A DNA stretch of 54,428 bases from a virus, in IMG/VR virus record IMGVR_UViG_3300020122_000519, positions 1 to 54,428 of that record; one strand, written 5' to 3'. The position numbers were made by a program, and so were the translations under genes. Under the pieces are notes generated by a model, which ran no database searches, was not told the DNA's origin, and saw nothing but the letters and a program-made list of their open reading frames with translations. Below, piece after piece: positions 1 to 54,428 of this stretch. The number at the start of each line of letters is the position of its first letter. The first letter of the stretch is position 1.

Positions 1-127
1 AACGCGGCAGGACCTGGTAGTAGCCCCCGCCGCTGCCCTCCAGCCGCATCGGGTCCGCGTCGGGCTCGAGCCGGGCCAGCGCCACCGTCTCGGTGGTCCG
101 AGCTGGTGCTGGGGGCGTCGGGGCCGG
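1..127. repeat. Exact terminal direct repeat (left copy)
   Basis: These bases are identical to 54302-54428. A 127-base exact overlap that lies inside a gene reading across the join is what an assembler leaves at the ends of a circular or circularly permuted molecule. A biological terminal repeat is possible but less likely, because the repeat falls inside the portal reading frame. Confidence 0.95.
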
Positions 128-286
128 GATCGAGGTGGGCGCGGAGAGCCCTAGCGTCTGCGCGGCCTTGGAGATCTTGGCCAGCGTGCTCCCCCGGACG
201 GACTTCCCCGCGTACGCGGTGCGCACGGTGCGGGGGTCGACTTCAGCCAAGGCGGCGACGCGTGCGAGCTGGGCGCGATCGAGCAT
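1..286 (-). CDS. Portal protein, N-terminal part with fused HTH domain
   Basis: This is the 5' end of the portal gene, which continues at 54301 once the ends are joined. The frame is open from an ATG at 284-286 (stop codon upstream at 314-316) straight into the portal body. The first 45 or so residues look like a small helix-turn-helix domain: a helix, then EVDPRTVRTAYAGK, then a conserved VRGST turn and a further helix. A Pro/Ala/Thr-rich linker of about 20 residues (48-67) leads to a GTG codon at position 85 that could be an alternative start. Neither start has a strong ribosome binding site. Full length would be 696 aa against 629 aa from the GTG. A fusion is the simplest reading; an internal start producing a conventional portal cannot be excluded. 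Confidence 0.65.
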   Translation of the reverse strand, partial: MLDRAQLARVAALAEVDPRTVRTAYAGKSVRGSTLAKISKAAQTLGLSAPTSIPAPTPPAPARTTETVALARLEPDADPMRLEGSGGGYYQVLPR

Positions 287-374
287 CCTGAATAAGAAGC
301 AGCGCTCGGCTCGTCAGGACTTGCGCAAATTGCCGACAAATTGCAGCAAATGCTCTTGCTGCGAGTTGCTGCCT

Positions 375-1799
375 TTACCGGCGGCGGCCCCACCGGGTGA
401 CGATCGGCTCGCTCCCGAAGCTCGGGGGGGCTCCGGAGTCGACCAGGTGGCGGTAGGCCCCCGACAGGGCGTCCACGTCGTCCTTCTTGCCTTCAGGGAA
501 GCGCTCCAGGGCCAGCAGGAAGGCCTCGTTCCACGGGCCGCGGACGATGGAGACGTTCTTCGCGGGCGGGCTCGCCTGGGAGGAGATGGGGCCCGCCCGG
601 GTCACCTTGTCCCCGGTCTCCGGAGCGGCCCGGACGGTGTAACCCTGGAGCTTCTTGACCAGGTAGCCCGCTTGGAACTTGCCGGCCTGGCCCGGGTCCT
701 GGGGCAGGCTGATCTCCACCCCCTCGCCGTCGTCCTTGGCCGTGGTGAGGATCCGCTCCTCGACCCCCGCCGGCGGCCACCGACCGCGCTCCACGTGCTC
801 GACGGTGAGCTTCCCGTCCTCATCCTGGGCCAAGCGGCACCCCACCGTCCAGTCTGGGTCCGAGCCGGACTCGGGCTCGGTGCCGGCCAAGTCCCAGTGT
901 CGCACCCGCCGCGCTTCTGTGGGCCCCTTGTCCACGAAGGTGAACCACTCCCGGCGGAAGTAGAGGCCCGCCGCGGGGCGGATGTTCCAGTCGCCCGCGC
1001 GCAGCTGGGCGCGGCGCACCGGGTCCAAGCCCATGAGCCGCTGGGCGTAGCCCGGGTCATTCTCGGAGAGCTTGGGGTTGTCCTCGATGCGTGCGGGGAT
1101 GAAGACGCGGGTCAAGGGCAGGGGGAGCTTGATGCGCTCGCTGGGCGGCGCGGCGTGCCACGCCTTCAGCATCGCTTGGGCCTCTTGCAGCTGGAGCCAC
1201 CGCTCTCCTTGATCCTCGTTGAGGTACCACAGGTGCTCCCCGGGTTTTCCCTTGATGCCCGTCCATTCCTCGCCGGGGGGCAGGCCTAGCCACGGCGCCC
1301 ACCGCCGCTGCACCCAGTCGTGCCCCTCGCCGCCGGGGTTGGAGCCAGAGCGGATCCGCAGCGGGATGCCGGCGCTCGAGCGCGCTCGCGCGAGCATGTA
1401 CTCGTACTGCCTCCGGGTGAAGGAGGTGAGCTCGTCGAAGGCTAAGTACTGGAACTCGGACGACTGGTAGGCGTCCACCGACTCCTCGTGCTCCAGGTGG
1501 CCGAACCAGATGAGGGCCCCGGACGGGAAGCGCCAGAAGTGCTTGGACTCGTTGTAGCGGCCCCCTAAGCGCGGGTACCACAGCTTGGAGCGCGGGATGA
1601 CGCTGGTCTCCAACTCGGGGTAGGTGCGCCGCAGGTAGAGTGCCTGGTACTCGGGCCGCTCGATGTAGCGCAGGGCGCCCATCAACAGTCCCTCGGACTT
1701 GCCCCCGCCGGCGGCCCCCCCGTAGAGCAACTCGTACGTCGCCGACTTGAGGAAGTCTGTCTGCCTGCCGGGGTTCGGCTTCCAGGCGGCCTCCGGCAT
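375..1799 (-). CDS. terL: Terminase large subunit
   Basis: DNA-packaging motor ATPase and nuclease, 474 aa. The Walker A loop GGAAGGGKS is at residues 27-35 and a Walker B/DE segment reads YLAFDELTSF. The C-terminal RNase H-like nuclease has HWDLAGTEPESGSDPD for the first acidic cluster and a late KKDDVDALSGAY segment carrying the last acidic residues. Length and order fit a headful or cos-type terminase. It lies 4 bases after the small subunit gene and upstream of the portal gene across the join, the usual packaging order. Confidence 0.95.
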   Translation of the reverse strand: MPEAAWKPNPGRQTDFLKSATYELLYGGAAGGGKSEGLLMGALRYIERPEYQALYLRRTYPELETSVIPRSKLWYPRLGGRYNESKHFWRFPSGALIWFGHLEHEESVDAYQSSEFQYLAFDELTSFTRRQYEYMLARARSSAGIPLRIRSGSNPGGEGHDWVQRRWAPWLGLPPGEEWTGIKGKPGEHLWYLNEDQGERWLQLQEAQAMLKAWHAAPPSERIKLPLPLTRVFIPARIEDNPKLSENDPGYAQRLMGLDPVRRAQLRAGDWNIRPAAGLYFRREWFTFVDKGPTEARRVRHWDLAGTEPESGSDPDWTVGCRLAQDEDGKLTVEHVERGRWPPAGVEERILTTAKDDGEGVEISLPQDPGQAGKFQAGYLVKKLQGYTVRAAPETGDKVTRAGPISSQASPPAKNVSIVRGPWNEAFLLALERFPEGKKDDVDALSGAYRHLVDSGAPPSFGSEPIVTRWGRRR

Positions 1800-1803
1800 G
1801 CGG

Positions 1804-2151
1804 CTACTGCTCCGAGGCCGGGTCCGCGTCTTCCCGTGGCAGGTAGATGCTGGGGCCCTTCACCTCGGCCTTGAGGTTGATGTCGATGTCCTGCTCCTGC
1901 TTGGGCTTGCCCCAGGCGTGCTCGATGATGACTTCGTTGGCCCGGACGACGAAGGAGGTGGCGTTCTTGCCCTTGGCGATCTTCTCCAGGCGCTCGAGGG
2001 CCCCGCGCGACTTCTCCCGGCACAGTTCTTTGAAGCTGCGCTGCTCCTCGGTGAGCGGGGGGCGGCCGTGCCGGTTGATGCGCGGGTCTCCGGGCTTGAA
2101 CCCGCCGCGGGTGGGCTTGCGCCCTGTTTTAGGGCTGTTCCTACTGCCCAC
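1804..2151 (-). CDS. terS: Terminase small subunit-like protein
   Basis: 115 aa, directly upstream of the large terminase. The N-terminal GFKPGDPRINRHGRP segment resembles the DUF5681-type basic start seen in many phage small terminases. The middle is helical and charged, with RANEVIIEHAWGKPKQ near residue 70-85, a segment typical of small terminase proteins. The likely role is DNA recognition for packaging. The call rests on position and these motifs. Confidence 0.8.
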   Translation of the reverse strand: MGSRNSPKTGRKPTRGGFKPGDPRINRHGRPPLTEEQRSFKELCREKSRGALERLEKIAKGKNATSFVVRANEVIIEHAWGKPKQEQDIDINLKAEVKGPSIYLPREDADPASEQ

Positions 2152-6460: not shown

Positions 6461-6669
6461 GCTGCCTCCTGGATTGTCGCGGTGGGTCCGCACATCGCGC
6501 ACTCAACGCGCGGGAGAATCTCGCCCAACTCCTTGCGGACGAGCTTGAGCGCGTTGTGGGGGTTTCGCCCGTAGCCGTCCGTGCAGGCGTCGAGCAGCTC
6601 CTCGAGCGTCCGGCGGATCTCCTCGCGGGAGAACACGGCCAAACCGCAACTCTTGCATTGGGACTTCAC
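6457..6669 (-). CDS. Small zinc-ribbon protein
   Basis: 70 aa from GTG 6669 with AAGGAG upstream. CKSC at residues 5-8 and CAMC at 57-60 flank a helical core, the pattern of a zinc ribbon with ligands at both ends. Overlaps both neighbours by 4 bases. Confidence 0.7.
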   Translation of the reverse strand: MKSQCKSCGLAVFSREEIRRTLEELLDACTDGYGRNPHNALKLVRKELGEILPRVECAMCGPTATIQEAA

Positions 6670-6905
6670 GCTGTCTCCTTCAGGGCTGTCTCCCCTGCGG
6701 ACGTCAGGAAGAACGAGCGGGCCACCATGTCTCGCCGCTCGAGCAGTCCCTTCGCGACGCAGGCGTTGACGAGGCACATCACGCCGTTCGTCGAGCCGAT
6801 GCCCATCAGGCCGCACAACTCCCGGATGGAGGGCGGGCGCTTGGCCTGCCACCCGTCGTGGATGAGCTTGAGCAGCTCGAGTTGGCGGGGAGTGGGCGGC
6901 CTCAC
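6666..6905 (-). CDS. LexA-type winged-helix protein without protease domain
   Basis: 79 aa from GTG 6905. The opening (PTPRQLELLKLI, then PPSIRELCGLMGIGSTNGV) matches the LexA N-terminal DNA-binding domain. The protein ends after the wing, so there is no self-cleavage domain. It may act as a phage regulator that competes for LexA-like sites, or serve only in local control. Confidence 0.8.
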   Translation of the reverse strand: MRPPTPRQLELLKLIHDGWQAKRPPSIRELCGLMGIGSTNGVMCLVNACVAKGLLERRDMVARSFFLTSAGETALKETA

Positions 6906-7360: not shown

Positions 7361-7731
7361 GCCGTCTCTCCTTCCCCGAGGCTCGCCGCCAGCGAGCACG
7401 CCTTGCCCAACACGGCGCCCACCTGCGACTTAGGGCGGTGGACGAGCCACTTGGCCTCGCCGCCCCGGTTGATGGGCTCGAGCGTCGGCTCCAGTGCCTC
7501 CACCAGCATCGAGAACGACGCAGGCTCGAACTCTTTGGGCAGGCCGGGCGGGGCGCCCACCGCCTTGTTCACGAAGTCCAACGCCTGTCGCGCGAGCGAG
7601 GTGTCTCCGCCAGCGGCTTGGAGGAACAACTGCCACTCGTCGAGCGGCAGGGTGTCGAAGTTCGGCTGGCCGCGACACTGGCCGGCGACGTAGAGGAAGC
7701 GCGCTTTGCGTAAGCAGTCGAGCAGGCTCAC
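7357..7731 (-). CDS. Hypothetical protein
   Basis: 124 aa from GTG 7731 (GTGA overlap with the methyltransferase stop). Helical, with a short Cys-containing N-terminus. Not recognised. Confidence 0.6.
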   Translation of the reverse strand: MSLLDCLRKARFLYVAGQCRGQPNFDTLPLDEWQLFLQAAGGDTSLARQALDFVNKAVGAPPGLPKEFEPASFSMLVEALEPTLEPINRGGEAKWLVHRPKSQVGAVLGKACSLAASLGEGETA

Positions 7732-9302
7732 GCGACACTCCCAAAGCAAATGGAAGCAGGAGGCGTTACGGACCCGGCCTCCTGCTCCACTCCGTTGGGC
7801 TCATTCGCCCGTTGGGTTTCTTCGTCAGCGCGCCGCATCTGCTCTCCGACGCTGCAGGCGACTGCTTCGGCTAGAGGGGGGGGCATGGCCTGTCCGCGCT
7901 GGCTCCAGCGGGAGCGCTTGGTCTTGCCGCTGAAGCACCAGTCCTCAGGGAAGCCTTGGAGGATGGTTCCCGCGAGCTCGCTCAAGACGACCGCGTTCGG
8001 CCCGCTGTGGCTCCTGTGCTCCTCGTCGTGGTGGCCTGGAACGCCCAAGCCCCGGTGCGTGACCGTCGTCCCGGGCCTGCTCCACGGCCAGTCGAGCAAC
8101 CTCGCGTCGTCCTGCTTCGTCGACTGCGTCCGCGCGGGGTTGTCGCTGCTCGTGTCGTGGTGCGGTCGGACCGCCAGCATCGCCTGGTGACCGCGACCGT
8201 TGGCCGTCACCGTCCGGACCGGCTCTTCGGGGTCGAGCGGGGGTTGGTTCCGAAGCTCAAGCCGCTCGGGCAGCTCCAGCATCGAGCCCGCCTGCGCGAC
8301 GCGGCCGCCGTTGGTCCGCACCACCATCGAGGGCGCGTCCAACTGCGAGATGGGGTGGTTCGCCTTTGGCTCCAGCGCCAAGACGACTTGCGGCGCGCTG
8401 TGCCCGCTGCCGCCGCCCCGGATGGTCGGTGAGGGTTCGTCGGGCTTGGGCTGCGGGTGTCCCTCGGTGTCGAGCAGCAGAACGCTGCTCTGGCACCGCT
8501 CCTTCGCTCCGAGCGTGCGCGCGGGCTGCGCGGGCGGGTGTCGCGGATTTAAGAGCACGTTGCCATCGGAGAGGTTCGACACTCCGACGACCCGCGCAGG
8601 TTTATCCTCGACGCTTCCGTGCTGGGCTGAGTTCTGGGCGCGCTTCCGTAACCGGCACGGGCGCCCCAACTGCTCGAGGCTCAAGTGGCCCAGCGCGTCT
8701 CGGCACGTCACCCAGGGCTTGAGCGCGTGCAGTCCCAAGGAGCCCGCGAGCAGCTCCCCGGGGTCGCAATGCGTCGGCATCGGCCACTGGATGCAGGGGC
8801 CGGAGAGGTGTCCAAACCAGAAGGGTCGAACCCTGTGCTGTGGGACGCCGTAGTCGGCCGCGTCCAGCGTGGCGAAGTCGGCGATGCAGTAGCCGACCTT
8901 CGCCAGTGGGGCCAGCGCGGCTTGGAGGTGGTGCCACTGCGTGGAGTCCTCGAGGCCCGGGACGTTCCCGATGAGGTACGCGTCCGGCTTGAGCAGTTCG
9001 ATCAACTCGCAGGTGACGTGCAGCATGTCGCGCTCGTCTTGGACGCCCAACCGCTTCCCCGCGCGGCTCCACGGTGTGCAGGGCGGGTCCGCGACGAAGA
9101 GCCGGATGCGCGGCAGCCTCGCTCCCAGCTTGGCCAGGCGCAGGAAGTCGCGCGCGTCCATCTGGAGCGGGCGGTGGCCCAAGTTCTCCTCGTACGAGTC
9201 GCAGGCGTCCAGGTCCTTGTCGACGGCCAGGTCGAAGAGGATTCCGGCGCGTCGGAAGCCCTCCGCCATCCCACCCGAGCAGGGGAAGATCTCAACGTTC
9301 AA
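7728..9302 (-). CDS. dcm: DNA cytosine-5 methyltransferase
   Basis: 524 aa from TTG 9302, overlapping the helicase stop as TTGA with AGGAG upstream. Motif I is IFPCSGGMAEGF, motif IV ADPPCTPWSR with nucleophile C75, motif VIII QHRVRPF (155-159), and motifs IX-X appear near the C-terminus (LQGFPEDW, then GQAMPPPLA). Motif VI, normally ENV, reads GNV at 112-114, so the conserved Glu is missing. The long recognition region holds four loosely repeated P-x-RT-x-x-G-G-type segments. It would methylate phage DNA against restriction if active. Confidence 0.9.
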   Translation of the reverse strand: MNVEIFPCSGGMAEGFRRAGILFDLAVDKDLDACDSYEENLGHRPLQMDARDFLRLAKLGARLPRIRLFVADPPCTPWSRAGKRLGVQDERDMLHVTCELIELLKPDAYLIGNVPGLEDSTQWHHLQAALAPLAKVGYCIADFATLDAADYGVPQHRVRPFWFGHLSGPCIQWPMPTHCDPGELLAGSLGLHALKPWVTCRDALGHLSLEQLGRPCRLRKRAQNSAQHGSVEDKPARVVGVSNLSDGNVLLNPRHPPAQPARTLGAKERCQSSVLLLDTEGHPQPKPDEPSPTIRGGGSGHSAPQVVLALEPKANHPISQLDAPSMVVRTNGGRVAQAGSMLELPERLELRNQPPLDPEEPVRTVTANGRGHQAMLAVRPHHDTSSDNPARTQSTKQDDARLLDWPWSRPGTTVTHRGLGVPGHHDEEHRSHSGPNAVVLSELAGTILQGFPEDWCFSGKTKRSRWSQRGQAMPPPLAEAVACSVGEQMRRADEETQRANEPNGVEQEAGSVTPPASICFGSVA

Positions 9303-12506: not shown

Positions 12507-13571
12507 CTACAACACCAGTCGGTCCAACTCGCGGCGTTGGTAGGCGAGCGAGACGTGGGTGTAGATCTCCTCGGTGGGCGAGGCGTTCGCGTGGCCGACC
12601 AGGAGCCGGATGCACAGAGGGTCGGCCCCCGCCTCGCGGTGGAGCGTCACCGCAGTGTGCCTCAAGTCGTGGAACCGGATGCGGCGGGTCCGCGGAACGA
12701 GCCACAGTACGAAGCCGCAGCGTGGGCACGCCTTCGTCTCCTTGAGCGCGAGCAGCTCCTTGTGGCCGCACCCCTTGCGCCGGCACTTGGCCTCGTAGCC
12801 CAGAACAACCCCCGCGTCCCCCATCGCCACTTTCAAGATACGACTGAGCTTCGTGTCCTTTCGAAACCGGCCGCCATCCTCGCGGGGAAAGACGAGCTCG
12901 CTCGGGCTCATCTCAATGGCGCGCCGGATAGCCTCGAAGGCGGCGGCAGGAATCGGGACGCGGCGCGGGCGGCCCGTCTTGGTGGTGTCGCGCCCGTGGC
13001 TGCGGCGGATCCACGCCAAGCGCTGAGCGAGGTCCACGTCTTCTTTTCGCAAGCCGAAAAGTTCGCCCTTCCGGTCCCCCATCACCAGAGCAACGGTGAA
13101 GAGGTCTCTCCGGTCAGGGCGCACGCACCGGAGCACCGCGCGCGCCTCTTCCAAGGACAGCGTGTCATAGGCGGGCCTGGGCACCTTGCATCGCGTCGCC
13201 AACTTGAACGGGTTGACCGCTGGCCATTTCTTGCTCTTTTGTGCGAACGCCGCGACTCGCGAGCCCACCGAGAGGGCCTTGTTCTTGGTCGCAGGGCCGA
13301 TGTCCGTCATGGAGGCGATGGCGCGCTCGATGTCGCAGGGCTGGAGGCTCTTCGCCGTGAGGTGGCCAATCTCTCGATTGAGGCGCTCGACGTGCCCCCG
13401 GGCGTTGCCGGGGTCCTGAAACCTACTCGCGACCGTTTGGAGCCACTCTGCGGAAATTTCGCGGAACGTTAAAACGTGTTCACTCACATCTAAATCCAGC
13501 ATCAACTGTCGGAGCTTCCGCACGTCCTCCGGCGTATCGAGCCGGATGACATAACCAGACTTCCTTGACAC
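12507..13571 (-). CDS. int: Tyrosine-type site-specific integrase
   Basis: 354 aa from GTG 13571. Residues 30-120 are the core-binding domain and 135-354 the catalytic domain. The catalytic set is visible: R167 in DRKGEL, K198 in TKTG, H301-x-x-R304 in HDLRHT, H327 in VGHAN and nucleophile Y337. Between boxes I and II is a zinc ribbon (C263, C268, C282, C285) inserted just before the HxxR strand. From memory, this insert is frequent in integrases of myxobacteria and their phages. The gene lies beside a tRNA-Gly attP candidate and behind the RHH regulator gene. Confidence 0.95.
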   Translation of the reverse strand: MSRKSGYVIRLDTPEDVRKLRQLMLDLDVSEHVLTFREISAEWLQTVASRFQDPGNARGHVERLNREIGHLTAKSLQPCDIERAIASMTDIGPATKNKALSVGSRVAAFAQKSKKWPAVNPFKLATRCKVPRPAYDTLSLEEARAVLRCVRPDRRDLFTVALVMGDRKGELFGLRKEDVDLAQRLAWIRRSHGRDTTKTGRPRRVPIPAAAFEAIRRAIEMSPSELVFPREDGGRFRKDTKLSRILKVAMGDAGVVLGYEAKCRRKGCGHKELLALKETKACPRCGFVLWLVPRTRRIRFHDLRHTAVTLHREAGADPLCIRLLVGHANASPTEEIYTHVSLAYQRRELDRLVL

Positions 13572-20044: not shown

Positions 20045-20184
20045 TGCTCGGCCGCATCCTCTGCGTCTTCGGGCTGCACCTGGCGCCACCGGGCATCAGC
20101 ACGAAGCTCAGCGTCTTCTTCGAGTGCGCGCGCTGCCGGGCGCTCGTGCCCGGGGACTGGCACCGGAAGGAGTCGAGGCGGTGA
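20044..20184 (+). CDS. 46-aa protein with CxxC
   Basis: ATG 20044 shares bases with the previous stop (TGATG), and the stop overlaps the next GTG. A hydrophobic N-terminus (ILCVFGLHLAPPG) precedes FECARCRAL, a possible half zinc knuckle. Confidence 0.55.
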   Translation: MLGRILCVFGLHLAPPGISTKLSVFFECARCRALVPGDWHRKESRR

Positions 20185-21890
20185 AGGAGTCGGCACCGCT
20201 CACCTTCGCCGCGAAGGGCCCCGGAGTCCGCGTGGACTTGAAGAAGCTCGTCGAGTCCCGCGCGCTGGTGCAGGCGAACAGCGGGGGCGGCAAGTCGTGG
20301 CTGCTCAGGGCGCTCCTCGAGCAGACCTCCGGGCGCGTGCAGCAGTTCGTCTTCGACCCCGAGGGCGAGTTCCACACGCTGCGCGAGCGCTTCGACTACG
20401 TCTTGGCGGCCAAACACGGTGGGGACGTCGAGGCCTCCGCGCATACCGCTGCGCTCTTGGTCCGCCGGCTGATGGAGATGAACGTCAGCGCCGTCTTTGA
20501 CCTCTACGACTTGTCGAAGGACGAGAAGCGGGAGTTCCTCCGCCGCGCCCTGGTGGAACTGATGAATCTGCCTCGGGAACTGTGGCGGCCGGTGCTGGCG
20601 GTGGTGGATGAGATCCACGACTTCGCCCCCGAGGCCGGCCACGGCGAGGCCCAGTCGCTCGACGCGGTCCGCGACACCGCGAGCCGCGGGCGCAAGCGAT
20701 TGGTCTGCCTGGTGGGAGCGACGCAGCGGCTGGGCAAGCTCAGCAAGGACGTGGCGGCGGAGTTGATCAACAAATTCGTGGGGCGCACCTCGCTGGACGT
20801 GGACTTGAAGCGCGCGGTGTCTGAGCTTGGGATGAGCCCGAAGGAGGGCGGCCCCGTCCTCCGCTCGCTCGGGGCTGGCGAGTTCTACGCCTACGGCCCG
20901 GCCATCTCGAACGAGGTGGTCCTGGTGCGCGGGCCCACGCCAATCACCCGGCCACCGAAGGTGGGCGCGGCCGCGAAGGCTCCACCGCCTGCACCGGAGA
21001 AGGTGCGCGCGGTGTTGGCCCAGTTTGCAGACTTGCCCAAGGAGGCGGAGGAGCGGGCGCAGACGGTCGAGGCGCTCCAGAAAGAGGTCCGCGAGTTGAA
21101 GCGGAAGCTCAAGGAAGCCCCGAAGGCGAAGGTGGAGATCAAGGAGGTCCCGGTGCTGAAGGAGAAGGAGTTGAAGCGGCTGGAGAAGGTGGCCGAGCGG
21201 TTGGCGGCGGTCTCGTCGGAGGCGAGCGCGGCGGCGCAGGCGATTGTAGCGCCGCTAAAGGCGTTCTCAGGTCACTCCTCGTCGCTGCCGCTCGCGTTGC
21301 CTCGGATACCTGTTCCCGGGGAGATCGGCAGGACCAGGGCGGCGCCGATGATCGCCCAGGGGAACAACGGGACCGTCGCCCGCATCAACCATCCCCCGTC
21401 CAGCTACGTCGCGGTCGACGCCGCCGGGGTAATCGGCAAGGGCGAGCGCAGGGTCCTCGCTGCGGTAGCCCAGCATGAGCATGGCGTGGACCGCGTCCAA
21501 CTCTCCGTCTTGACTGGCTACGCCCGATCCAGCCGCGACACCTACCTCCAGCGCCTCCGGGCCGCCGACTTGGTCTGTGAGCGCGGAGACGCGATCTTCG
21601 TCACTGAGAAGGGGAAGGCAGAGCTCGGGAGCGACTTCACGCCGTTGCCCACCGGGGACGCGCTCCGCGAGTACTGGATGCGCTCGCTGCCGGAAGGTGA
21701 GCGCCGAGTGTTGGAGAACGTCGCGGGGCAATGGCCCGGCGAGGTGACTCGGGACGCGGTATCCGAGGCCACGGGTTACGCCCGGTCGAGCCGAGACACG
21801 TACCTCCAGCGACTCTCGGCGCGGAAGCTCGTCGTCACCAGCAAGGACGGTGTTCGTGCGTCGGACATGCTCTTCGATGGTGGACAATGA
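20181..21890 (+). CDS. HerA-like ATPase with two tandem winged-helix repeats
   Basis: 569 aa from GTG 20181 (GTGA overlap). The FtsK/HerA-type ATPase has Walker A ANSGGGKS (32-39) and Walker B LAVVDEIHDF (139-148). LVCLVGATQRLGKLSKD supplies sensor-like and arginine-bearing segments. Residues ~300-370 form a charged coiled coil. The C-terminus holds two tandem HTH units, each containing an identical TGYARSSRDTYLQRL block. It likely moves or loads on DNA during recombination or replication next to the RecT, nuclease and DnaQ genes. Confidence 0.85.
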   Translation: MKESAPLTFAAKGPGVRVDLKKLVESRALVQANSGGGKSWLLRALLEQTSGRVQQFVFDPEGEFHTLRERFDYVLAAKHGGDVEASAHTAALLVRRLMEMNVSAVFDLYDLSKDEKREFLRRALVELMNLPRELWRPVLAVVDEIHDFAPEAGHGEAQSLDAVRDTASRGRKRLVCLVGATQRLGKLSKDVAAELINKFVGRTSLDVDLKRAVSELGMSPKEGGPVLRSLGAGEFYAYGPAISNEVVLVRGPTPITRPPKVGAAAKAPPPAPEKVRAVLAQFADLPKEAEERAQTVEALQKEVRELKRKLKEAPKAKVEIKEVPVLKEKELKRLEKVAERLAAVSSEASAAAQAIVAPLKAFSGHSSSLPLALPRIPVPGEIGRTRAAPMIAQGNNGTVARINHPPSSYVAVDAAGVIGKGERRVLAAVAQHEHGVDRVQLSVLTGYARSSRDTYLQRLRAADLVCERGDAIFVTEKGKAELGSDFTPLPTGDALREYWMRSLPEGERRVLENVAGQWPGEVTRDAVSEATGYARSSRDTYLQRLSARKLVVTSKDGVRASDMLFDGGQ

Positions 21891-24949: not shown

Positions 24950-25477
24950 TCAGAAGTCGAGCGCGAGGACCGGGTGGAGTTCGACGCCGTTGGGCGCGAC
25001 GCCCGTCTGCCCGTGGAGCTTGTCGAAGAACGCGACGCCCGTGACGGTGACGGGCTTGGGTGTGCGCAGCTTCTTGAAGGCCGCCCCCACGCGCATGACT
25101 TTGAGCAGGGCGTGCCGCGCGGCGAGCATCTGCGCGGCCTGCTCCTTTGGGGCCCCGTCCAGACACCTCGGGGAGGGGACTTCGACGATCATCGTCTTCG
25201 AGGTGTCCGCCGGGTCCGCGATGACGACGTGGAAGTCCTGGTCCGCTTCCAACTTCGCGCCGATGAGCACCGCTTTGACTCGGTACACCACGCGCTCCGC
25301 CTGGGCCCTCGGTGCGTCGTCTTGCCAGGCGGGAGCGCCGTAGGCGCGGAGCTGCGTGACAGTCGCGTCTACTGGGTGTGAGAAGTCGATGGAAGTCGCG
25401 GCGGGGTCGGAGAGGGTCTTCACCGCCCACCTCTCCGTCCCACAGCCGAGAGCCAGTGCGAGCAGGGCGGCGATCAT
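24950..25477 (-). CDS. Secreted lipoprotein, unknown function
   Basis: 175 aa. A short signal peptide ends in a lipobox-like LALGC (Cys at residue 12). The mature part is beta-rich and ends with VTVTGVAFFDKLHGQTGVAP, a motif I associate with a family of bacterial exported proteins. Possibly an envelope protein made late in infection or in lysogens. It overlaps the peptidase gene by 4 bases. Confidence 0.75.
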   Translation of the reverse strand: MIAALLALALGCGTERWAVKTLSDPAATSIDFSHPVDATVTQLRAYGAPAWQDDAPRAQAERVVYRVKAVLIGAKLEADQDFHVVIADPADTSKTMIVEVPSPRCLDGAPKEQAAQMLAARHALLKVMRVGAAFKKLRTPKPVTVTGVAFFDKLHGQTGVAPNGVELHPVLALDF

Positions 25478-26268
25478 GCGGGCGTCGTCCAGGCTTCAGA
25501 CCAGCAGAGCGGCAGATACTCGAGCGGCATGAGGCAGTACCCGTCGAGCCCCCACGACGGGCCCCAGGAATTCTTGCAGAGGACGTACTTCTTGCCGTTG
25601 AGCGTGAGGTAGCCGGGACTGCACAGGCAGTGCCCACCGAGCACGCCTTCCTTGCTCGTGTCGGGCATGGGGACGATTCCGTCCGCGCCGGTGCTCTCAA
25701 AGCTCGCAAACACGGTGAATCCGAAGACCACGGGCTTGGGCTCGGCGAGCACGGCCAGGACGTTGTCCGGGTTGGTGTAGTCGACCTGCTGAGGCAGTCC
25801 GCAGCGGTACGGCTGCGCGGCCACGTCGCAACCCGAATTCGGCGCCTGGGACGGGTCTCCGGTGTACGGCAGCCACGTCTCTGGGCAGGTGCCCCACTTG
25901 TAGAGCGTGGCCATCGTGTCCGCCACGGAGGCGCCGGCGTCGGCGGGGAAGGTCCCCTCTGCCATCCGGGTGCGGGCGTAGATGTAGGCCGGGGATAGGT
26001 CTCCGCCGAGAGGGGTCGAGCTCTTCCCCCACAAGGCGCAGTTGATCTCCTTGAAGGCCGCCTCCCCGTGCCCCGTGCAGCTCCCTTCCTGGCCCTGGTC
26101 GCGGACAGGGCGGCAGAGCGGGCGCATGTCGACGCTGTCCGGGAGCTGGACCGCCTTGGGTTCGTACTTCGGTGCGGCCTTGAGGAGCCAGTGGTCTGCG
26201 GGCGGCGGCCGGTAGTCGTACCTCCGGCCGAGGACTGACTTCGCGGGCTTCGGCATGAGCATCGTCAT
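25474..26268 (-). CDS. Papain-family (C1A) cysteine peptidase
   Basis: 264 aa from ATG 26268 (GTG 26271 possible). RDQGQEGSCTGHG holds catalytic Cys64 in the GSCT form common in bacterial C1A enzymes. GGHCLC gives His213 and KNSWGPSWGLDGY gives Asn233. All of the Cys-His-Asn triad is present. No signal peptide is evident. It sits between envelope and lysis genes, so it may act during lysis or virion entry, or on host proteins. Confidence 0.88.
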   Translation of the reverse strand: MTMLMPKPAKSVLGRRYDYRPPPADHWLLKAAPKYEPKAVQLPDSVDMRPLCRPVRDQGQEGSCTGHGEAAFKEINCALWGKSSTPLGGDLSPAYIYARTRMAEGTFPADAGASVADTMATLYKWGTCPETWLPYTGDPSQAPNSGCDVAAQPYRCGLPQQVDYTNPDNVLAVLAEPKPVVFGFTVFASFESTGADGIVPMPDTSKEGVLGGHCLCSPGYLTLNGKKYVLCKNSWGPSWGLDGYCLMPLEYLPLCWSEAWTTPA

Positions 26269-49261: not shown

Positions 49262-50593
49262 TTAGGTGCGCAGACCGGTCTGCTTCCGGGTGGCCACGAC
49301 GCCGAGCACGGGATCCCGGTCCTGGTCCTTGAACATCTTCATCATCTTCGCGCGCTGCTTGCGGACCTCGGCGGCCTGGTCCTGGTCGGTCATCTTGATG
49401 GCCTCGACCATCTCCTCGTTGTCGATGCCGCAGTGCCGCGCGACCTCTTCCTGCTCTCGGCTGAGCATGGCCGTCTCCTTCCCGTCCTTGGTCTTGACCT
49501 CGACGACGGAGCGGGTGTTGAGGACCACCGGGGCCACGCTCAAGAACTCCTCGAACTCGTCGTACGAGCGCGACAGCCAGTACTTGGCTGTACCGGGCGT
49601 CAGCTTGCCCTCCGCCTTGCCCTTCTCGATGAGCAGGTTCAGCTTCTCGGCCTCGCGCTCCTGCTTGAGCGCCACGACGGTCTCGTGGTCCTCGTCGTAC
49701 TGGTCCGACTTGACGCGCATCGCCTTGAGCCGCGCCATCTGCTTGGTCGAGTCGGAGGTGCCGGTGAGGACGGTGAGCATCTTCGCCACTTCCGAATTGC
49801 GCCGGAGCATGTTCGGCTTTGCGCCCTCCAAGTCCTCGTGCTCGACCTCGTCGTCGCCGTCGCCCTCCGTCTTGTCGACGTCCTGCCCGTCGACCGCGGA
49901 GGCCTTCACCGGTGGCCCTTCGGCCACGCCCATCGCCTTCATCGACTCAGGCGAGAGGCTCATGTGCTTGCCGAGCGCTTTCAACTCCTCCTGCGCCGGC
50001 GCGTCCCCGTCGCCGTCGTGCAGGGCCTTGAGGCGGTCCGCGTGGATGCCGCACGCCTTCGACAGGTCCGCGAAGGACTTCCCGCCCTTCAGGTAGCTGG
50101 CCAGGTGATCGGCGATCTGGTGTTTCATTGTTTGAGCCTCGCGGGTGCGTCGGTTGGCCGCCACGGTCTCGATTGCGTCCATGGCGGGGATGTTGGTGAG
50201 CGCTACGTTGATGAGCTCGACGATTTCCTGAGTCTTGGTGTCGGTCTCGAAGGCGGGGGAGAAGTAGACCCACTCGCCGTCCTCAATCTCTTCGCGCGCG
50301 GCGGGCGTCCACTCGATGTTGGTGCAGTAGATGCCGTCGTCGCGCAGCTCCAAGTCGCACTTGCCGGCCGACTTGCCGTCCTGGGGGGAGGTCCCCTTGA
50401 GCGCGAAGTGGTCGTAGTCGAAGGTGACTTTGAGCGCGCGCCGCTGGTAGGTCTCCATCAACTCGGCGGCGGACTCCTTGCTCAGCTTGAAGACGCCCTT
50501 GGTGCTCGGGTTGGCCCCGAAGCGGAAGAGGCGGAACTCCTTCTTGGCCTTGAGCCTCCGGGCCAGGACGACGACGGGCTTACCTGTCTTCAC
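49262..50593 (-). CDS. Head maturation protease/scaffold (Mu gpI-like)
   Basis: 443 aa from GTG 50593. N-terminal part: FRLFRFGANPSTKGVFKLSK, VTFDYDHFALKG and INVALTNIPAMDAIE, matching the Mu I protease family. The C-terminal ~250 residues are acidic and helical, as for the scaffold part. Needed for capsid assembly and proteolytic maturation. Confidence 0.88.
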   Translation of the reverse strand: MKTGKPVVVLARRLKAKKEFRLFRFGANPSTKGVFKLSKESAAELMETYQRRALKVTFDYDHFALKGTSPQDGKSAGKCDLELRDDGIYCTNIEWTPAAREEIEDGEWVYFSPAFETDTKTQEIVELINVALTNIPAMDAIETVAANRRTREAQTMKHQIADHLASYLKGGKSFADLSKACGIHADRLKALHDGDGDAPAQEELKALGKHMSLSPESMKAMGVAEGPPVKASAVDGQDVDKTEGDGDDEVEHEDLEGAKPNMLRRNSEVAKMLTVLTGTSDSTKQMARLKAMRVKSDQYDEDHETVVALKQEREAEKLNLLIEKGKAEGKLTPGTAKYWLSRSYDEFEEFLSVAPVVLNTRSVVEVKTKDGKETAMLSREQEEVARHCGIDNEEMVEAIKMTDQDQAAEVRKQRAKMMKMFKDQDRDPVLGVVATRKQTGLRT

Positions 50594-50692: not shown

Positions 50693-51481
50693 TCACTGCC
50701 CGTAGCCTGTGAGTTTCAACTCGTAGAGGTTCGCCAGCTCCGGCGGCCGGGAGGCCAAATCCGGCTCGAAATCCTCGGCCGGCGTCCCGAACCCCTCGTC
50801 CGGGTCCGCGTCCGGCGCCTCCTCGTCGATCCCCTCCTCCTTGGCCTCCTCGTCGGTCAAGGGGACGATGTCGGAGCGGCACTGGTGGTGGAGCGGCGGC
50901 TGGTGGCTGGCCCAGAAGTCGTCGTCCGCCTTGAGCACCGTCCCGTGCAGCTCCTCGCAGACCTCGCTCGTCCGGCTGTCCAAGATGGCCACGAAGCGGC
51001 AGTAGGGGTGCGTCGCGCGCACCTCGGGCCGGCTGTTCTGGGCCCACCGGCCGGCGCTGTAGGCGCTCTGGACGTTGGTGCGGAAGATGGTCTCGATGCG
51101 GGAGGGGTCCTCCTGGCCCCACTGGTCCTCGAGCAGCTCCCCCACGCGCTCGCGGAAGTCCTCGAGCGTCTCCCCGTTCTCCACGGCCGACTCGATCGCC
51201 CGCCACACCTCCGAGACGACGTCTAAGTCCGCCACACCTGAGACGGTGAAGGCTTTGAGCTTGGCGCGCTCCTCGAGCGCGTAGAACTCCTCCGCCGAGA
51301 GCTTGAGCTTGTTGCGCAGGAACTCGATGGCCCGGCCGACCGCGGTCTCGAAGTCTTGGGCTTCAGGGGACTCGAGCTCGTCCAAGTCCTCGCCGCTGGG
51401 CGCCTCGTCCTCCTTCTCCTCCTCCGCGGCCAGGGTGACGAGCCGGGTAGGCGAGAGCGCGACCATGACGAGCTTAGCCAT
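50693..51481 (-). CDS. Head morphogenesis protein (Mu gpF / SPP1 gp7)
   Basis: 262 aa from ATG 51481. ETIFRTNVQSAYSAGRWAQN, YCRFVAILDSRTSEVCEELH and LHHQCRSDIVPL are the minor head protein signature. It lies between portal and protease genes in Mu order. Confidence 0.92.
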   Translation of the reverse strand: MAKLVMVALSPTRLVTLAAEEEKEDEAPSGEDLDELESPEAQDFETAVGRAIEFLRNKLKLSAEEFYALEERAKLKAFTVSGVADLDVVSEVWRAIESAVENGETLEDFRERVGELLEDQWGQEDPSRIETIFRTNVQSAYSAGRWAQNSRPEVRATHPYCRFVAILDSRTSEVCEELHGTVLKADDDFWASHQPPLHHQCRSDIVPLTDEEAKEEGIDEEAPDADPDEGFGTPAEDFEPDLASRPPELANLYELKLTGYGQ

Positions 51482-51722: not shown

Positions 51723-52256
51723 TTACTTGAGCCCCAGGAATTGGTAGAGGTCCCCTGGCGAGCAGTTGGCGGGCTCGAGCGTCTCCGCGCCTGGGTAGCC
51801 GGAGTCCTTGAGCACCCAGGCGACCAACTCCGAGCAGAACATCGAGTGCGCGGCGTGGATGGGGTTGGCCCACTTCTTCTTGAGCCACCGACCGAAGAGC
51901 ACCAGCGCCATCCCGAAAAGCCCGGTGTAGTCGTACACCTCGCCCAGCCAGGCCCCGGCCTCCTTGACGCCCGCGTCCAAGGCGTGCTGCCCGCCCCACA
52001 CGCCCACGATCGTGTTCCTCTGGGTGAAGCGCTCCCGGCTGGTCATCCGGACGCCGAAGGCGGAGGCCTCGATCACCATCTCCTTGCCGAAGACGGTCAG
52101 GTCCTCGCGCAGGATGAGGAAGGCGTGGGAGCAGGGGGCTTTGGTCACCTTGCGGATGAGCCAGGACAGGAAGCCCCGCTCCTTCGAGAACCCGATGGAG
52201 ATCGCCGTGCTCTGGCCCCCCGCGCGCTCGAGCGCTTCTTTGATCGAGCCGCTCAC
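51723..52256 (-). CDS. Permuted NlpC/P60-type papain-like protein
   Basis: 177 aa from GTG 52256 (GTGA overlap). CSHAFLIL (His44), EMVIEAS (Glu63) and HSMFCSELVAWVL (Cys141) follow the YiiX-type circularly permuted papain-like order His...Cys. It may cleave peptidoglycan or lipid/peptide bonds. Its place in the head cluster suggests a virion-borne enzyme. Confidence 0.75.
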   Translation of the reverse strand: MSGSIKEALERAGGQSTAISIGFSKERGFLSWLIRKVTKAPCSHAFLILREDLTVFGKEMVIEASAFGVRMTSRERFTQRNTIVGVWGGQHALDAGVKEAGAWLGEVYDYTGLFGMALVLFGRWLKKKWANPIHAAHSMFCSELVAWVLKDSGYPGAETLEPANCSPGDLYQFLGLK

Positions 52257-52504
52257 TTGGCGATCCTCGCCCTCACCGCGGCGTCTTTCGCCTCGAGGAG
52301 CTTGCGCAAGGCGACCGAGCGCTCCGGGTTACGCGGCAGGGTGGCCACCAGGTCCCTGGCAAGCTCGCAGAAGGGCTTGGACACCTTCGCGAGCGCCTCC
52401 GGCAGGTGCCCGTACTCGAAGAACTGGAGGATGGGCTCCGGCTCCCTCAACTCGGGAGGGGCCTTGACCCCGTGCTGCTCGGACAGCTCCACGGCCTCAC
52501 CCAC
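52253..52504 (-). CDS. Acb2/Tad1 hairpin-like small protein
   Basis: 83 aa from GTG 52504, overlapping the portal end by 8 bases. FFEYGHLPEALAKVSKPFC, then ELARDLVATLPRNPERSVAL and RKLLEAKDAAVRA, form a two-helix hairpin. This pattern is familiar from many phages, and I associate it with the Acb2/Tad1 family that sequesters cyclic nucleotides of CBASS or Thoeris defence. Family placement is from memory of the motif, not a search. Confidence 0.6.
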   Translation of the reverse strand: MGEAVELSEQHGVKAPPELREPEPILQFFEYGHLPEALAKVSKPFCELARDLVATLPRNPERSVALRKLLEAKDAAVRARIAK

Positions 52505-54428
52505 GGTGGTCCACCTTGGCGGAGAGGTGCCCGACCAACTCGGCCAGGAGGATCGATCGCTCCACCACCCCGCGCAGCTGCCCCGGCTTCAGGTGCTGGT
52601 ACATCTTCTTCACTTTGGCGCGTAGATCCTCGTAGTCCGTCGCGGAGTCGACGAGGGAGAGCAGTTCGTTCACACGGTCTCCCATCGCCTTGCCGCCGGC
52701 GCCCTTTGCGGCTTCCGCTAGGTCGTCCACGTAGACCTGACCCTTGCGCCCCCCGGGCTTCAAGCCCTGGCGCCACCGGTTGCCGAAGGTGTCGCGCTTG
52801 GCCTGGACCTCCAGCGGCTGGTCCGCGGAGCCGTCCGGGCGCGGCTCGTCGCCTAAGACCGGGGGCGGCACCCCCACCGATCCCCCGGGGCCGCGCGGCC
52901 GCTCCGGCTGCTGCCCGGGCGTCGGCGGGGGGCGGGGCGGGGAGCGCTTCTCGTCGAGCACCGGCACCCCGTGCTTGTCGAGCAGGGCGTGGATGTCGGC
53001 CTCGGTGCCGGCGAGGAAGGGGACCGCGCTGGCGATCTTGGCCACCGCGTCCGCCGCCTTGGACTCGTCCTCGGGCGGGTCGACCTTGTAGGTGACTTCC
53101 GGCACCAGCCGCCGCCAGTCCACGCCCAGCTGCTCGGCCTCGGCCTCCCAGTTGTAGCGGACGAAGGGCGAGAGGACGGAGGCCGCGATGACTTGCTGGA
53201 GCGCCTCGACGTCGGCTTTCAGGTAGTCCGCCCGGACGTTCTCGTGGACCTGGGCGGCCGCGCGGCTGCCGGCGGCCCCCGTAATCTCCGTGGAGAGGTT
53301 CTGCCCCAGGGTGCAGATGGCGATGGAGGTGTTGATCCGCTTGATCCGCGTCTCGAAGAACGAGTCCGTATTCACCGAGGAGTCGGACGTCTTGAGCATC
53401 TCGACGTCGAAGCCGGGCTTGCCTTCCGCGTACCGGGGCAGGCGGATGGTGGTCTCGTTCCCGAAGTTCTGGAGTGCGGCCGCGAAGGCGGCCTTGTCGT
53501 TTGTGCTCGCCTCGGAAGGGACGAAGGCCTTCACCACGCCCACCGAGAACTTCTCCGAGGCGCGGGCCCAGTCCCGCCAGAGGAACTTGCGGTCGATCCA
53601 CAGGTAGCCCAGCACCCGGATGAGGCCGTAGAGCCAGCCGTGGTTGTGGCCCGAAGGCGTGAAGAACACCCACCGGCCGTCACCTGGGGCGAGCTCTATC
53701 TGACCGTCCTGGTGGATGAGCCAGTAGGAGCGGGTATCCCACCGCCAGTACAGGAACTGGGGGTGCCAGGACTTGAGCGTCGGGTAGACGACGTCGTTGC
53801 CGTCCTCGTCCTTGTCCCACGCCCACACCAACTCGCCGATGCCGGCGTTGAGCATGATGCCCCACGCGGCGAGCTCTTTGAGCGTGGCGGAGGGCATCAT
53901 CCGCTCCCAGTTGTCCTCCACGCACTTGGCGATGCGCTGCTTGAGCTCGATGACCTCCGGGGTGTCGGTCTCGCCTTCGCCCTGGACGTGCTGGGTGGCC
54001 CCCCCGGCGCCCCCGTCCGGTGCGGGGGGCGCGGCGGGGAGCGCGGAGGCGTGCTCGTCGCCCTGGCCCTGCCACTTGAACTCCATCGGCAGGCCGAAGA
54101 CCGCATTGACGCGGGTGGAGACGCAGCCGGTGACGTGGTCGTCCATCCGGGTGGCGTCGGAGAGCAGCGCGGCGGACTGGAACTGGCCTTGCTCGAGCTC
54201 TTCGATCGCCTGGTCCACCACGGGGTACGCATCCCAGGCGTGCTGCACCGAGATGGGTAACTCGAGGTAAGCCTTGAGGGAAGGCTGGATGTTCCCCGTG
54301 GAACGCGGCAGGACCTGGTAGTAGCCCCCGCCGCTGCCCTCCAGCCGCATCGGGTCCGCGTCGGGCTCGAGCCGGGCCAGCGCCACCGTCTCGGTGGTCC
54401 GAGCTGGTGCTGGGGGCGTCGGGGCCGG
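52497..54428 (-). CDS. Portal protein (Mu gp29/DUF935-like), main part
   Basis: The 5' end continues at the left end of the window. The body shows LPISVQHAWDAYPVVDQAIEEL in two parts, DDHVTGCVSTRVNAVFGLPM, RIAKCVEDNWERM, a DGRWVFFTPSGHNHGWLYGL segment and KAAFAAALQNFGNET, as in DUF935 portals. The C-terminus has a Pro/Arg-rich stretch (~490-530) and a helical end. Forms the DNA portal ring. An in-frame GTG at 54386 could start a 629-aa version without the HTH. Confidence 0.93.
   Translation of the reverse strand, partial: PAPTPPAPARTTETVALARLEPDADPMRLEGSGGGYYQVLPRSTGNIQPSLKAYLELPISVQHAWDAYPVVDQAIEELEQGQFQSAALLSDATRMDDHVTGCVSTRVNAVFGLPMEFKWQGQGDEHASALPAAPPAPDGGAGGATQHVQGEGETDTPEVIELKQRIAKCVEDNWERMMPSATLKELAAWGIMLNAGIGELVWAWDKDEDGNDVVYPTLKSWHPQFLYWRWDTRSYWLIHQDGQIELAPGDGRWVFFTPSGHNHGWLYGLIRVLGYLWIDRKFLWRDWARASEKFSVGVVKAFVPSEASTNDKAAFAAALQNFGNETTIRLPRYAEGKPGFDVEMLKTSDSSVNTDSFFETRIKRINTSIAICTLGQNLSTEITGAAGSRAAAQVHENVRADYLKADVEALQQVIAASVLSPFVRYNWEAEAEQLGVDWRRLVPEVTYKVDPPEDESKAADAVAKIASAVPFLAGTEADIHALLDKHGVPVLDEKRSPPRPPPTPGQQPERPRGPGGSVGVPPPVLGDEPRPDGSADQPLEVQAKRDTFGNRWRQGLKPGGRKGQVYVDDLAEAAKGAGGKAMGDRVNELLSLVDSATDYEDLRAKVKKMYQHLKPGQLRGVVERSILLAELVGHLSAKVDHRG
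54302..54428. repeat. Exact terminal direct repeat (right copy)
   Basis: Copy of bases 1-127. Collapsing the two copies gives a circle of 54301 bases and restores one uninterrupted portal frame. Confidence 0.95.

What the first reader, a model, noticed from the sequence alone, without database searches (positions are those of the whole stretch)
1..286. HTH domain fused in frame to the portal protein across the contig join
Joining the ends leaves one open frame from ATG 286 through a helix-turn-helix domain and a Pro-rich linker into the Mu-type portal, with no stop between. I know of no portal with an N-terminal DNA-binding domain. It could hold DNA or the terminase at the portal, or regulate genes before assembly. 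The GTG at 85 might also give a conventional portal, so two forms are possible.
Basis: partly seen in the sequence, partly recalled or inferred. Interest (0 to 1): 0.72.

Follow-up and report, generated by a model that had tools for sequence, protein, structure and literature searches.

The report
DNA-binding domain fused to phage portal
In this phage, and in three other phage sequences from metagenomes, the ring protein through which DNA enters the virus head carries a bacterial-repressor-type DNA-binding domain at its front end, next to a cluster of matching-looking repeats, so a virion building block may also act as a gene regulator.

Summary
The contig ends share an exact 127-bp repeat. 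Joining them gives one open frame, ATG 286 to 52497 on the minus strand, 696 aa: a three-helix HTH (aa 4-44), a Pro-rich linker, then a Mu-type portal (Portal_Mu E=2e-43). The HTH is predicted confidently and resembles LacI headpieces.

Three other phage contigs (L020, L060, L061) carry an HTH-portal fusion in uninterrupted sequence, without any join. There the HTH is Cro/C1-type (Pfam E=4e-10 to 6e-7). It is as constrained as the portal core, while the linker drifts. In L060 no ATG, GTG or TTG between aa 30 and 125 could give a portal without the HTH. The nearest relatives of the window's portal lack the HTH, and the tree needs at least two changes.

In all four, the TerL-portal gap is dense in GCAA/TTGC half-sites: the densest place in three, one of two in the fourth. 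My best reading is that the free portal subunit binds these sites and controls its own expression; in a related solved portal the N-terminus ends up inside the capsid. No binding was tested. Terminase anchoring is poorly supported. For the window alone, an internal portal start (ATG 49 or GTG 85) is not excluded.

The parts
1..127 (.). Terminal direct repeat, copy 1 (identical to 54302-54428); assembly overlap of a circular or circularly permuted genome
   Evidence: Exact match, longest overlap 127; contig G002 of L060 has the same 127-bp overlap
54302..54428 (.). Terminal direct repeat, copy 2
1..286 (-). 5' part of the HTH-portal gene, from ATG 286; continues at 54301 after the join
   Evidence: One open frame of 696 codons; chosen by the codon-model gene caller
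143..286 (-). HTH domain, aa 1-48, LacI-headpiece-like three-helix fold
   Evidence: AlphaFold2 pLDDT 84-92, helices 4-14, 18-25, 32-44; Foldseek: CelR 5ysz prob 1.00 rmsd 0.8 A, LacI 1l1m prob 0.99; Pfam HTH_26 E=0.02 below cut-off
86..142 (-). Pro/Ala-rich linker, aa 49-67
   Evidence: Translation; low pLDDT after the HTH
83..85 (-). GTG, aa 68: possible internal start
   Evidence: No Shine-Dalgarno motif
47..49 (-). ATG, aa 80: possible internal start, would give a portal N-terminus about as long as that of phage JBD30
52497..54301 (-). Rest of the HTH-portal gene; Portal_Mu match spans about 53019-54161
   Evidence: Portal_Mu E=2.4e-43, PHROG 113 portal E=3.8e-44
287..374 (-). TerL-portal gap with seven GCAA/TTGC half-sites, proposed operator
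   Evidence: 7 half-sites in 89 nt against a mean of 0.49, the only such place in the genome; repeats at 10, 11 and 21 bp spacing
375..1799 (-). Terminase large subunit, directly upstream of the HTH-portal gene
   Evidence: PHROG 979 E=2.9e-118; Terminase_6N and 6C
1804..2151 (-). 115-aa protein in the usual place of a small terminase (candidate TerS)
   Evidence: Position only; no significant Pfam, PHROG or NCBIfam match. L020 and L060 have a DUF5681 protein at this place

Best explanation
The gene encodes a Mu-type portal subunit with a repressor-type HTH joined to its N-terminus by a flexible linker. Shown by sequence: the fusion, its recurrence, selective retention of the HTH in the sister group, and the half-site cluster just upstream. 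Inferred: unassembled or ring-form portal binds the clustered GCAA/TTGC sites between terL and portal through several HTHs at once and represses, or otherwise tunes, transcription into its own gene and the genes after it. Incorporation of the portal into a procapsid shuts the HTH inside the shell and removes it from the operator, so portal synthesis follows demand. This would suit a protein needed at only 12 copies per virion.
For: Uninterrupted HTH-portal ORFs in L020, L060 and L061 (HTH_3/HTH_31 E=4e-10 to 5e-7 with Portal_Mu E<=4e-47). HTH identity equals portal-core identity (63/64, 49/47, 51/48%), while linkers are at 37, 15 and 26% with dN above dS. L060 has no ATG/GTG/TTG between aa 30 and 125. 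The TerL-portal gap is the only densest place for GCAA/TTGC half-sites in three of the four sequences and one of two in the fourth; HTH-bearing loci rank 1, 2, 5 and 9 of 113 for this upstream signal. HTH folds match LacI headpieces (window) and 434 Cro, C.BclI, HipB (L061). In the solved Mu-type portal of JBD30 (8rka, found), residues 13-47 lie in the wing inside the capsid, and crown, wing and stem are inside the procapsid (PMC11445458).
Against: No DNA binding or regulation was tested. The half-site motif was chosen by eye from these sequences, so the statistics are partly circular (L060 and L061 are only partly independent). Some HTH-free loci (L044, L046, L047, L058, L109) also have half-site clusters upstream. 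No sigma-70-like promoter was found in the gap. The nearest relatives of the window's portal do without the HTH. In the window the HTH is weak at sequence level and an internal start is not excluded.
Confidence: 0.45

Rival explanations
1. Packaging-site recognition: the half-site cluster is a pac-like site and the HTH-portal helps to bring phage DNA to the portal, as an addition to or substitute for the small terminase.
For: Small terminases also use N-terminal HTHs on flexible linkers around a ring (PMC9611059); the cluster lies between terL and portal; half-sites would suit multivalent binding by a 12-mer.
Against: In JBD30 the portal N-terminus is inside the procapsid, not on the terminase side. 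L020 and L060 keep a DUF5681 protein in the small-terminase position. TerLs of the window and L020 are not detectably similar.
Confidence: 0.15
2. In-virion role: twelve HTHs inside the head hold the packaged DNA that wraps the portal wing, without gene regulation.
For: JBD30 portal residues Arg13 and Arg18 already contact a DNA ring around the wing (PMC11445458); the HTH would sit at that end.
Against: A sequence-specific repressor-type fold and a clustered site next to the gene are not needed for this; packaged DNA is mostly non-specific.
Confidence: 0.12
3. In the window the HTH is not part of the virion protein: the portal is translated from ATG 49 or GTG 85, and the HTH region is a remnant or makes only a minor long form.
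For: Nearest relatives L158, L159 and L162 start 5-15 aa before the conserved core; aa 80 would match the JBD30 N-terminal length; ATG 286 has no Shine-Dalgarno motif.
Against: No stop between HTH and portal, codon bias of the N-terminal region, confident HTH fold, no Shine-Dalgarno motif at the internal starts either, and L060, where no such internal start exists.
Confidence: 0.18
4. Assembly artefact: the 127-bp end overlap joins two unrelated ends, or a sequencing error merged two genes.
For: The HTH and the portal core of the window lie on opposite sides of the join; no reads were available.
Against: The joined order TerL-portal is the order seen in Mx4, L020, L060 and L061, and three fusions exist without a join. 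The linker itself is present at both contig ends.
Confidence: 0.05

Closest known systems
Mu-type portal proteins (Pfam PF06074, PHROG 113; JBD30 gp32, PDB 8rka)
   Same: Portal core, conserved GQNL(S/T)TE and VHxxVR motifs, followed downstream by MuF-like and Mu I-type protease genes
   Different: JBD30 and the other portals examined have no HTH; here about 50 aa of HTH and a Pro-rich linker precede the core
LacI-family DNA-binding headpieces (LacI, CelR, CcpA, PurR)
   Same: The window's aa 1-48 fold onto them at 0.8-1.5 A
   Different: No sugar-binding or dimerisation domain; oligomerisation would come from the portal ring
Cro/C1-type regulators (434 Cro, C.BclI, HipB antitoxins)
   Same: HTH of L020, L060 and L061 by sequence and fold
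   Different: Fused to a virion structural protein
Small terminase subunits (TerS)
   Same: N-terminal HTH on a flexible linker, displayed on a ring (PMC9611059)
   Different: Portal core instead of the TerS oligomerisation core; portal N-terminus expected inside the head
Polyvalent portal or MuF fusions (PMC5512222)
   Same: Portal domain fused to an extra domain
   Different: Those described carry enzymatic domains; the passages read mention no DNA-binding fusion

Membership tests
Mu-type portal (PF06074) | Significant match over the portal core | tested here: met
   E=2.4e-43, profile 5-324 of 336
Mu-type portal (PF06074) | Neighbours: TerL upstream, MuF-like and Mu I-type protease downstream | tested here: met
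   TerL 375-1799; MuF-like 50693-51481; Mu-like_Pro 49262-50593
Mu-type portal (PF06074) | Forms a dodecameric ring | not testable with these tools
   Inferred from JBD30 (PMC11445458)
LacI-type or Cro/C1-type HTH | Sequence match above the curated cut-off | tested here: not met
   Window: HTH_26 15.6 bits, cut-off 22. The relatives L020, L060 and L061 pass for HTH_3
LacI-type or Cro/C1-type HTH | Three-helix HTH fold | tested here: met
   pLDDT 84-92; LacI-type structures at prob up to 1.00; Foldseek E-values 0.3 and worse because the domain is short
LacI-type or Cro/C1-type HTH | Specific DNA binding | not testable with these tools
   Clustered half-sites upstream are only suggestive
Small terminase | TerS oligomerisation core after the HTH | tested here: not met
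   The rest of the protein is Portal_Mu

The most novel reading that the evidence does not exclude
A virion portal that is also a sequence-specific, assembly-sensing autoregulator: free portal represses its own gene through clustered operators, and being built into a procapsid hides the DNA-binding domain, with the fusion arising more than once in evolution.
Probability: 0.33. Interest if true: 0.8.

Novelty: new variant of a known kind. Interest (0 to 1): 0.6.

Why it matters
Portals are thought of as purely structural. How phages keep portal supply low enough for one ring per head is an open question. A portal carrying its own repressor-type domain next to a candidate operator makes it testable with one purified domain, one 88-bp DNA and one reporter. 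A DNA-binding domain inside the head would also bear on genome retention and packaging.

Tried and rejected
HTH as a separate gene: rejected, as the frame has no stop before the portal, and no standalone HTH ORF of this family was found in 1.5 kb upstream of HTH-free portals. HTH as the only small terminase: disfavoured because L020 and L060 keep a DUF5681 protein before TerL. The profile-against-shuffles test of the window HTH with the sister HTHs was not decisive. Six viral-contig portal scans gave three further fusions besides the window; scans with the HTH alone and of bacterial genomes found no relatives. No phage or plasmid record matched the window HTH with significance. AlphaFold2 of the whole L061 portal was poor outside the HTH because only three sequences were used. 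With 90-nt windows the half-site signal of the fusion loci hardly stood out from controls; with 50-nt windows near the start it did.

Full report
What is there. The window is a virus record of 54,428 bases whose first and last 127 bases are identical. A second contig in this study, that of L060, shows the same 127-base end overlap, which is typical of a circular path in an assembler with that word length (general knowledge). After joining, one frame runs on the minus strand from ATG 286 to the stop at 52497 and encodes 696 aa; the upstream frame is closed by a stop. Residues 143-523 match Portal_Mu at E=2e-43 and the protein matches the PHROG portal family 113 (residues renumbered for the join). 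TerL (PHROG 979) ends 88 bases upstream. Downstream of the portal lie phage head genes, among them a MuF-like protein and a Mu I-type protease.

Is the N-terminal part coding? Third-position G+C is 0.90 in aa 1-48 and 0.95 in aa 68-104, like the portal core at 0.94; only the Pro-rich linker deviates. With a codon model trained on this genome without the portal gene, aa 1-67 score in the lower range of real genes but above 96.5% of wrong-frame windows, and the gene caller starts the gene at ATG 286. Sequence libraries see the HTH only weakly (HTH_26 E=0.02). AlphaFold2 gives a confident three-helix domain, and Foldseek places it with LacI-type headpieces: CelR at 0.8 A and 36% identity, then CcpA, LacI, RbsR and PurR, at probabilities up to 1.00 but with poor E-values because the domain is short.

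Related sequences. Portal searches in viral contigs gave about 110 distinct relatives. The closest to the window, L162, L158 and L159 (44-51% identity), begin 5-15 residues before the conserved core and have no HTH. Three others do have one, in uninterrupted sequence directly after TerL: L020, L060 and L061, with HTH_3 or HTH_31 at E=4e-10, 2e-8 and 5e-7 and Portal_Mu at E<=4e-47. Their HTH is of Cro/C1 type by fold (from the model); that of L061 also matches the LacI profile weakly (E=5e-4), so the two HTH kinds may be distantly related. Between these three, the HTH is as conserved as the portal core (63 against 64%, 49 against 47%, 51 against 48%) while the linker falls to 15-37% with more replacement than silent change. 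That pattern is what selection on both domains of one protein would give. In L060 no ATG, GTG or TTG lies between aa 30, inside the HTH, and aa 125, inside the portal core, so its portal can hardly be made without HTH sequence. In a portal tree the window and the L020 group lie apart, and at least two gains or losses are needed. Either the fusion arose twice, or it is old and was lost often; I favour two events but cannot decide.

The upstream region. The 88-base TerL-portal gap of the window holds seven GCAA or TTGC half-sites against a mean of 0.49 per window of that length, and no other place in the genome reaches this. The corresponding gaps of L060 and L061 are also the only densest places in their sequences, and that of L020 is one of two. 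Spacing is 10, 11 and 21 bases in the window, 9 and 9 in L020, 18 and 17 in L060, 19 in L061. Compared with the regions before 109 HTH-free portals, the four fusion loci rank 1, 2, 5 and 9. By my arithmetic the chance of four such ranks at random is about 2e-5, but the motif was chosen by looking at these sequences. Counting only L060 and L061 it is about 1e-3, and those too had been seen before the test. A clade around L044, L046 and L047, which has no HTH, also shows clusters, and with longer windows the contrast is weak. I take the signal as suggestive.

How it may work. In the JBD30 portal, the closest solved relative, residues 13 and 18 touch DNA wrapped around the wing inside the head, and residues 38-47 touch the inner capsid face. 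In the procapsid the crown, wing and stem are inside and the clip meets the shell (PMC11445458). JBD30 residue 45 aligns with window aa 124, so an added N-terminal HTH would be expected inside the assembled particle and free only before assembly. This argues against a role at the terminase side and for a role before assembly or on packaged DNA. Together with the half-site cluster upstream of the gene, the best-supported proposal is feedback control of portal synthesis by unassembled portal. It is an inference: no binding, promoter or regulation has been shown, and no promoter-like site of sigma-70 type was found there. From general knowledge, a precedent for assembly-coupled control is the P22 scaffolding protein, whose free form lowers its own synthesis; I could not find this in the papers held.

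What remains open for the window itself. GTG 85 and ATG 49 could start a portal without the HTH; none of the starts has a Shine-Dalgarno motif, while 41 of 72 called genes do. Whether both forms are made cannot be decided here.

Prior reports. Searches of open full-text papers found no portal with an N-terminal DNA-binding domain. Portal and MuF fusions with enzymatic domains are known (PMC5512222). The finding is therefore best called a new variant of a known protein, with a testable and unusual function.

Noticed in passing
window 25474-26268, minus: Papain-family (C1) cysteine protease gene in the tail-end part of the phage genome (Pfam Peptidase_C1 E=3e-13).
   Followed up: no
window 20181-21890, plus: HerA/DUF87-type ATPase of 569 aa with a weak C-terminal MarR-like HTH match, in a phage that already has a terminase.
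   Followed up: no
window 51723-52256, minus: Protein between portal and MuF-like gene matching PHROG 1128 (E=5e-20) and weakly the YiiX-like C92 amidase family.
   Followed up: no
window 12507-13487 and 6666-6905, minus: Tyrosine integrase (E=1e-47) and a LexA-type DNA-binding protein, which suggest a temperate phage.
   Followed up: no
window 7728-9302, minus: C5 cytosine methyltransferase of 524 aa with two separate Pfam stretches.
   Followed up: no
L044, L046, L047, L058 upstream of the portal: A clade of HTH-free portals that also has GCAA/TTGC clusters before the portal; unexplained.
   Followed up: partly
L207 4850-5187, minus: Short standalone HTH ORF (about 77 aa, stop to stop) resembling the window's HTH (E=0.005 in a local search; sequence).
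   Followed up: partly
L162 1-2970: In the closest relative of the window's portal, a terminase-like C-terminal sequence (ORF ending at 550, judged by eye) and the portal lie about 2.4 kb apart, so TerL next to the portal may be newly acquired in the window.
   Followed up: partly
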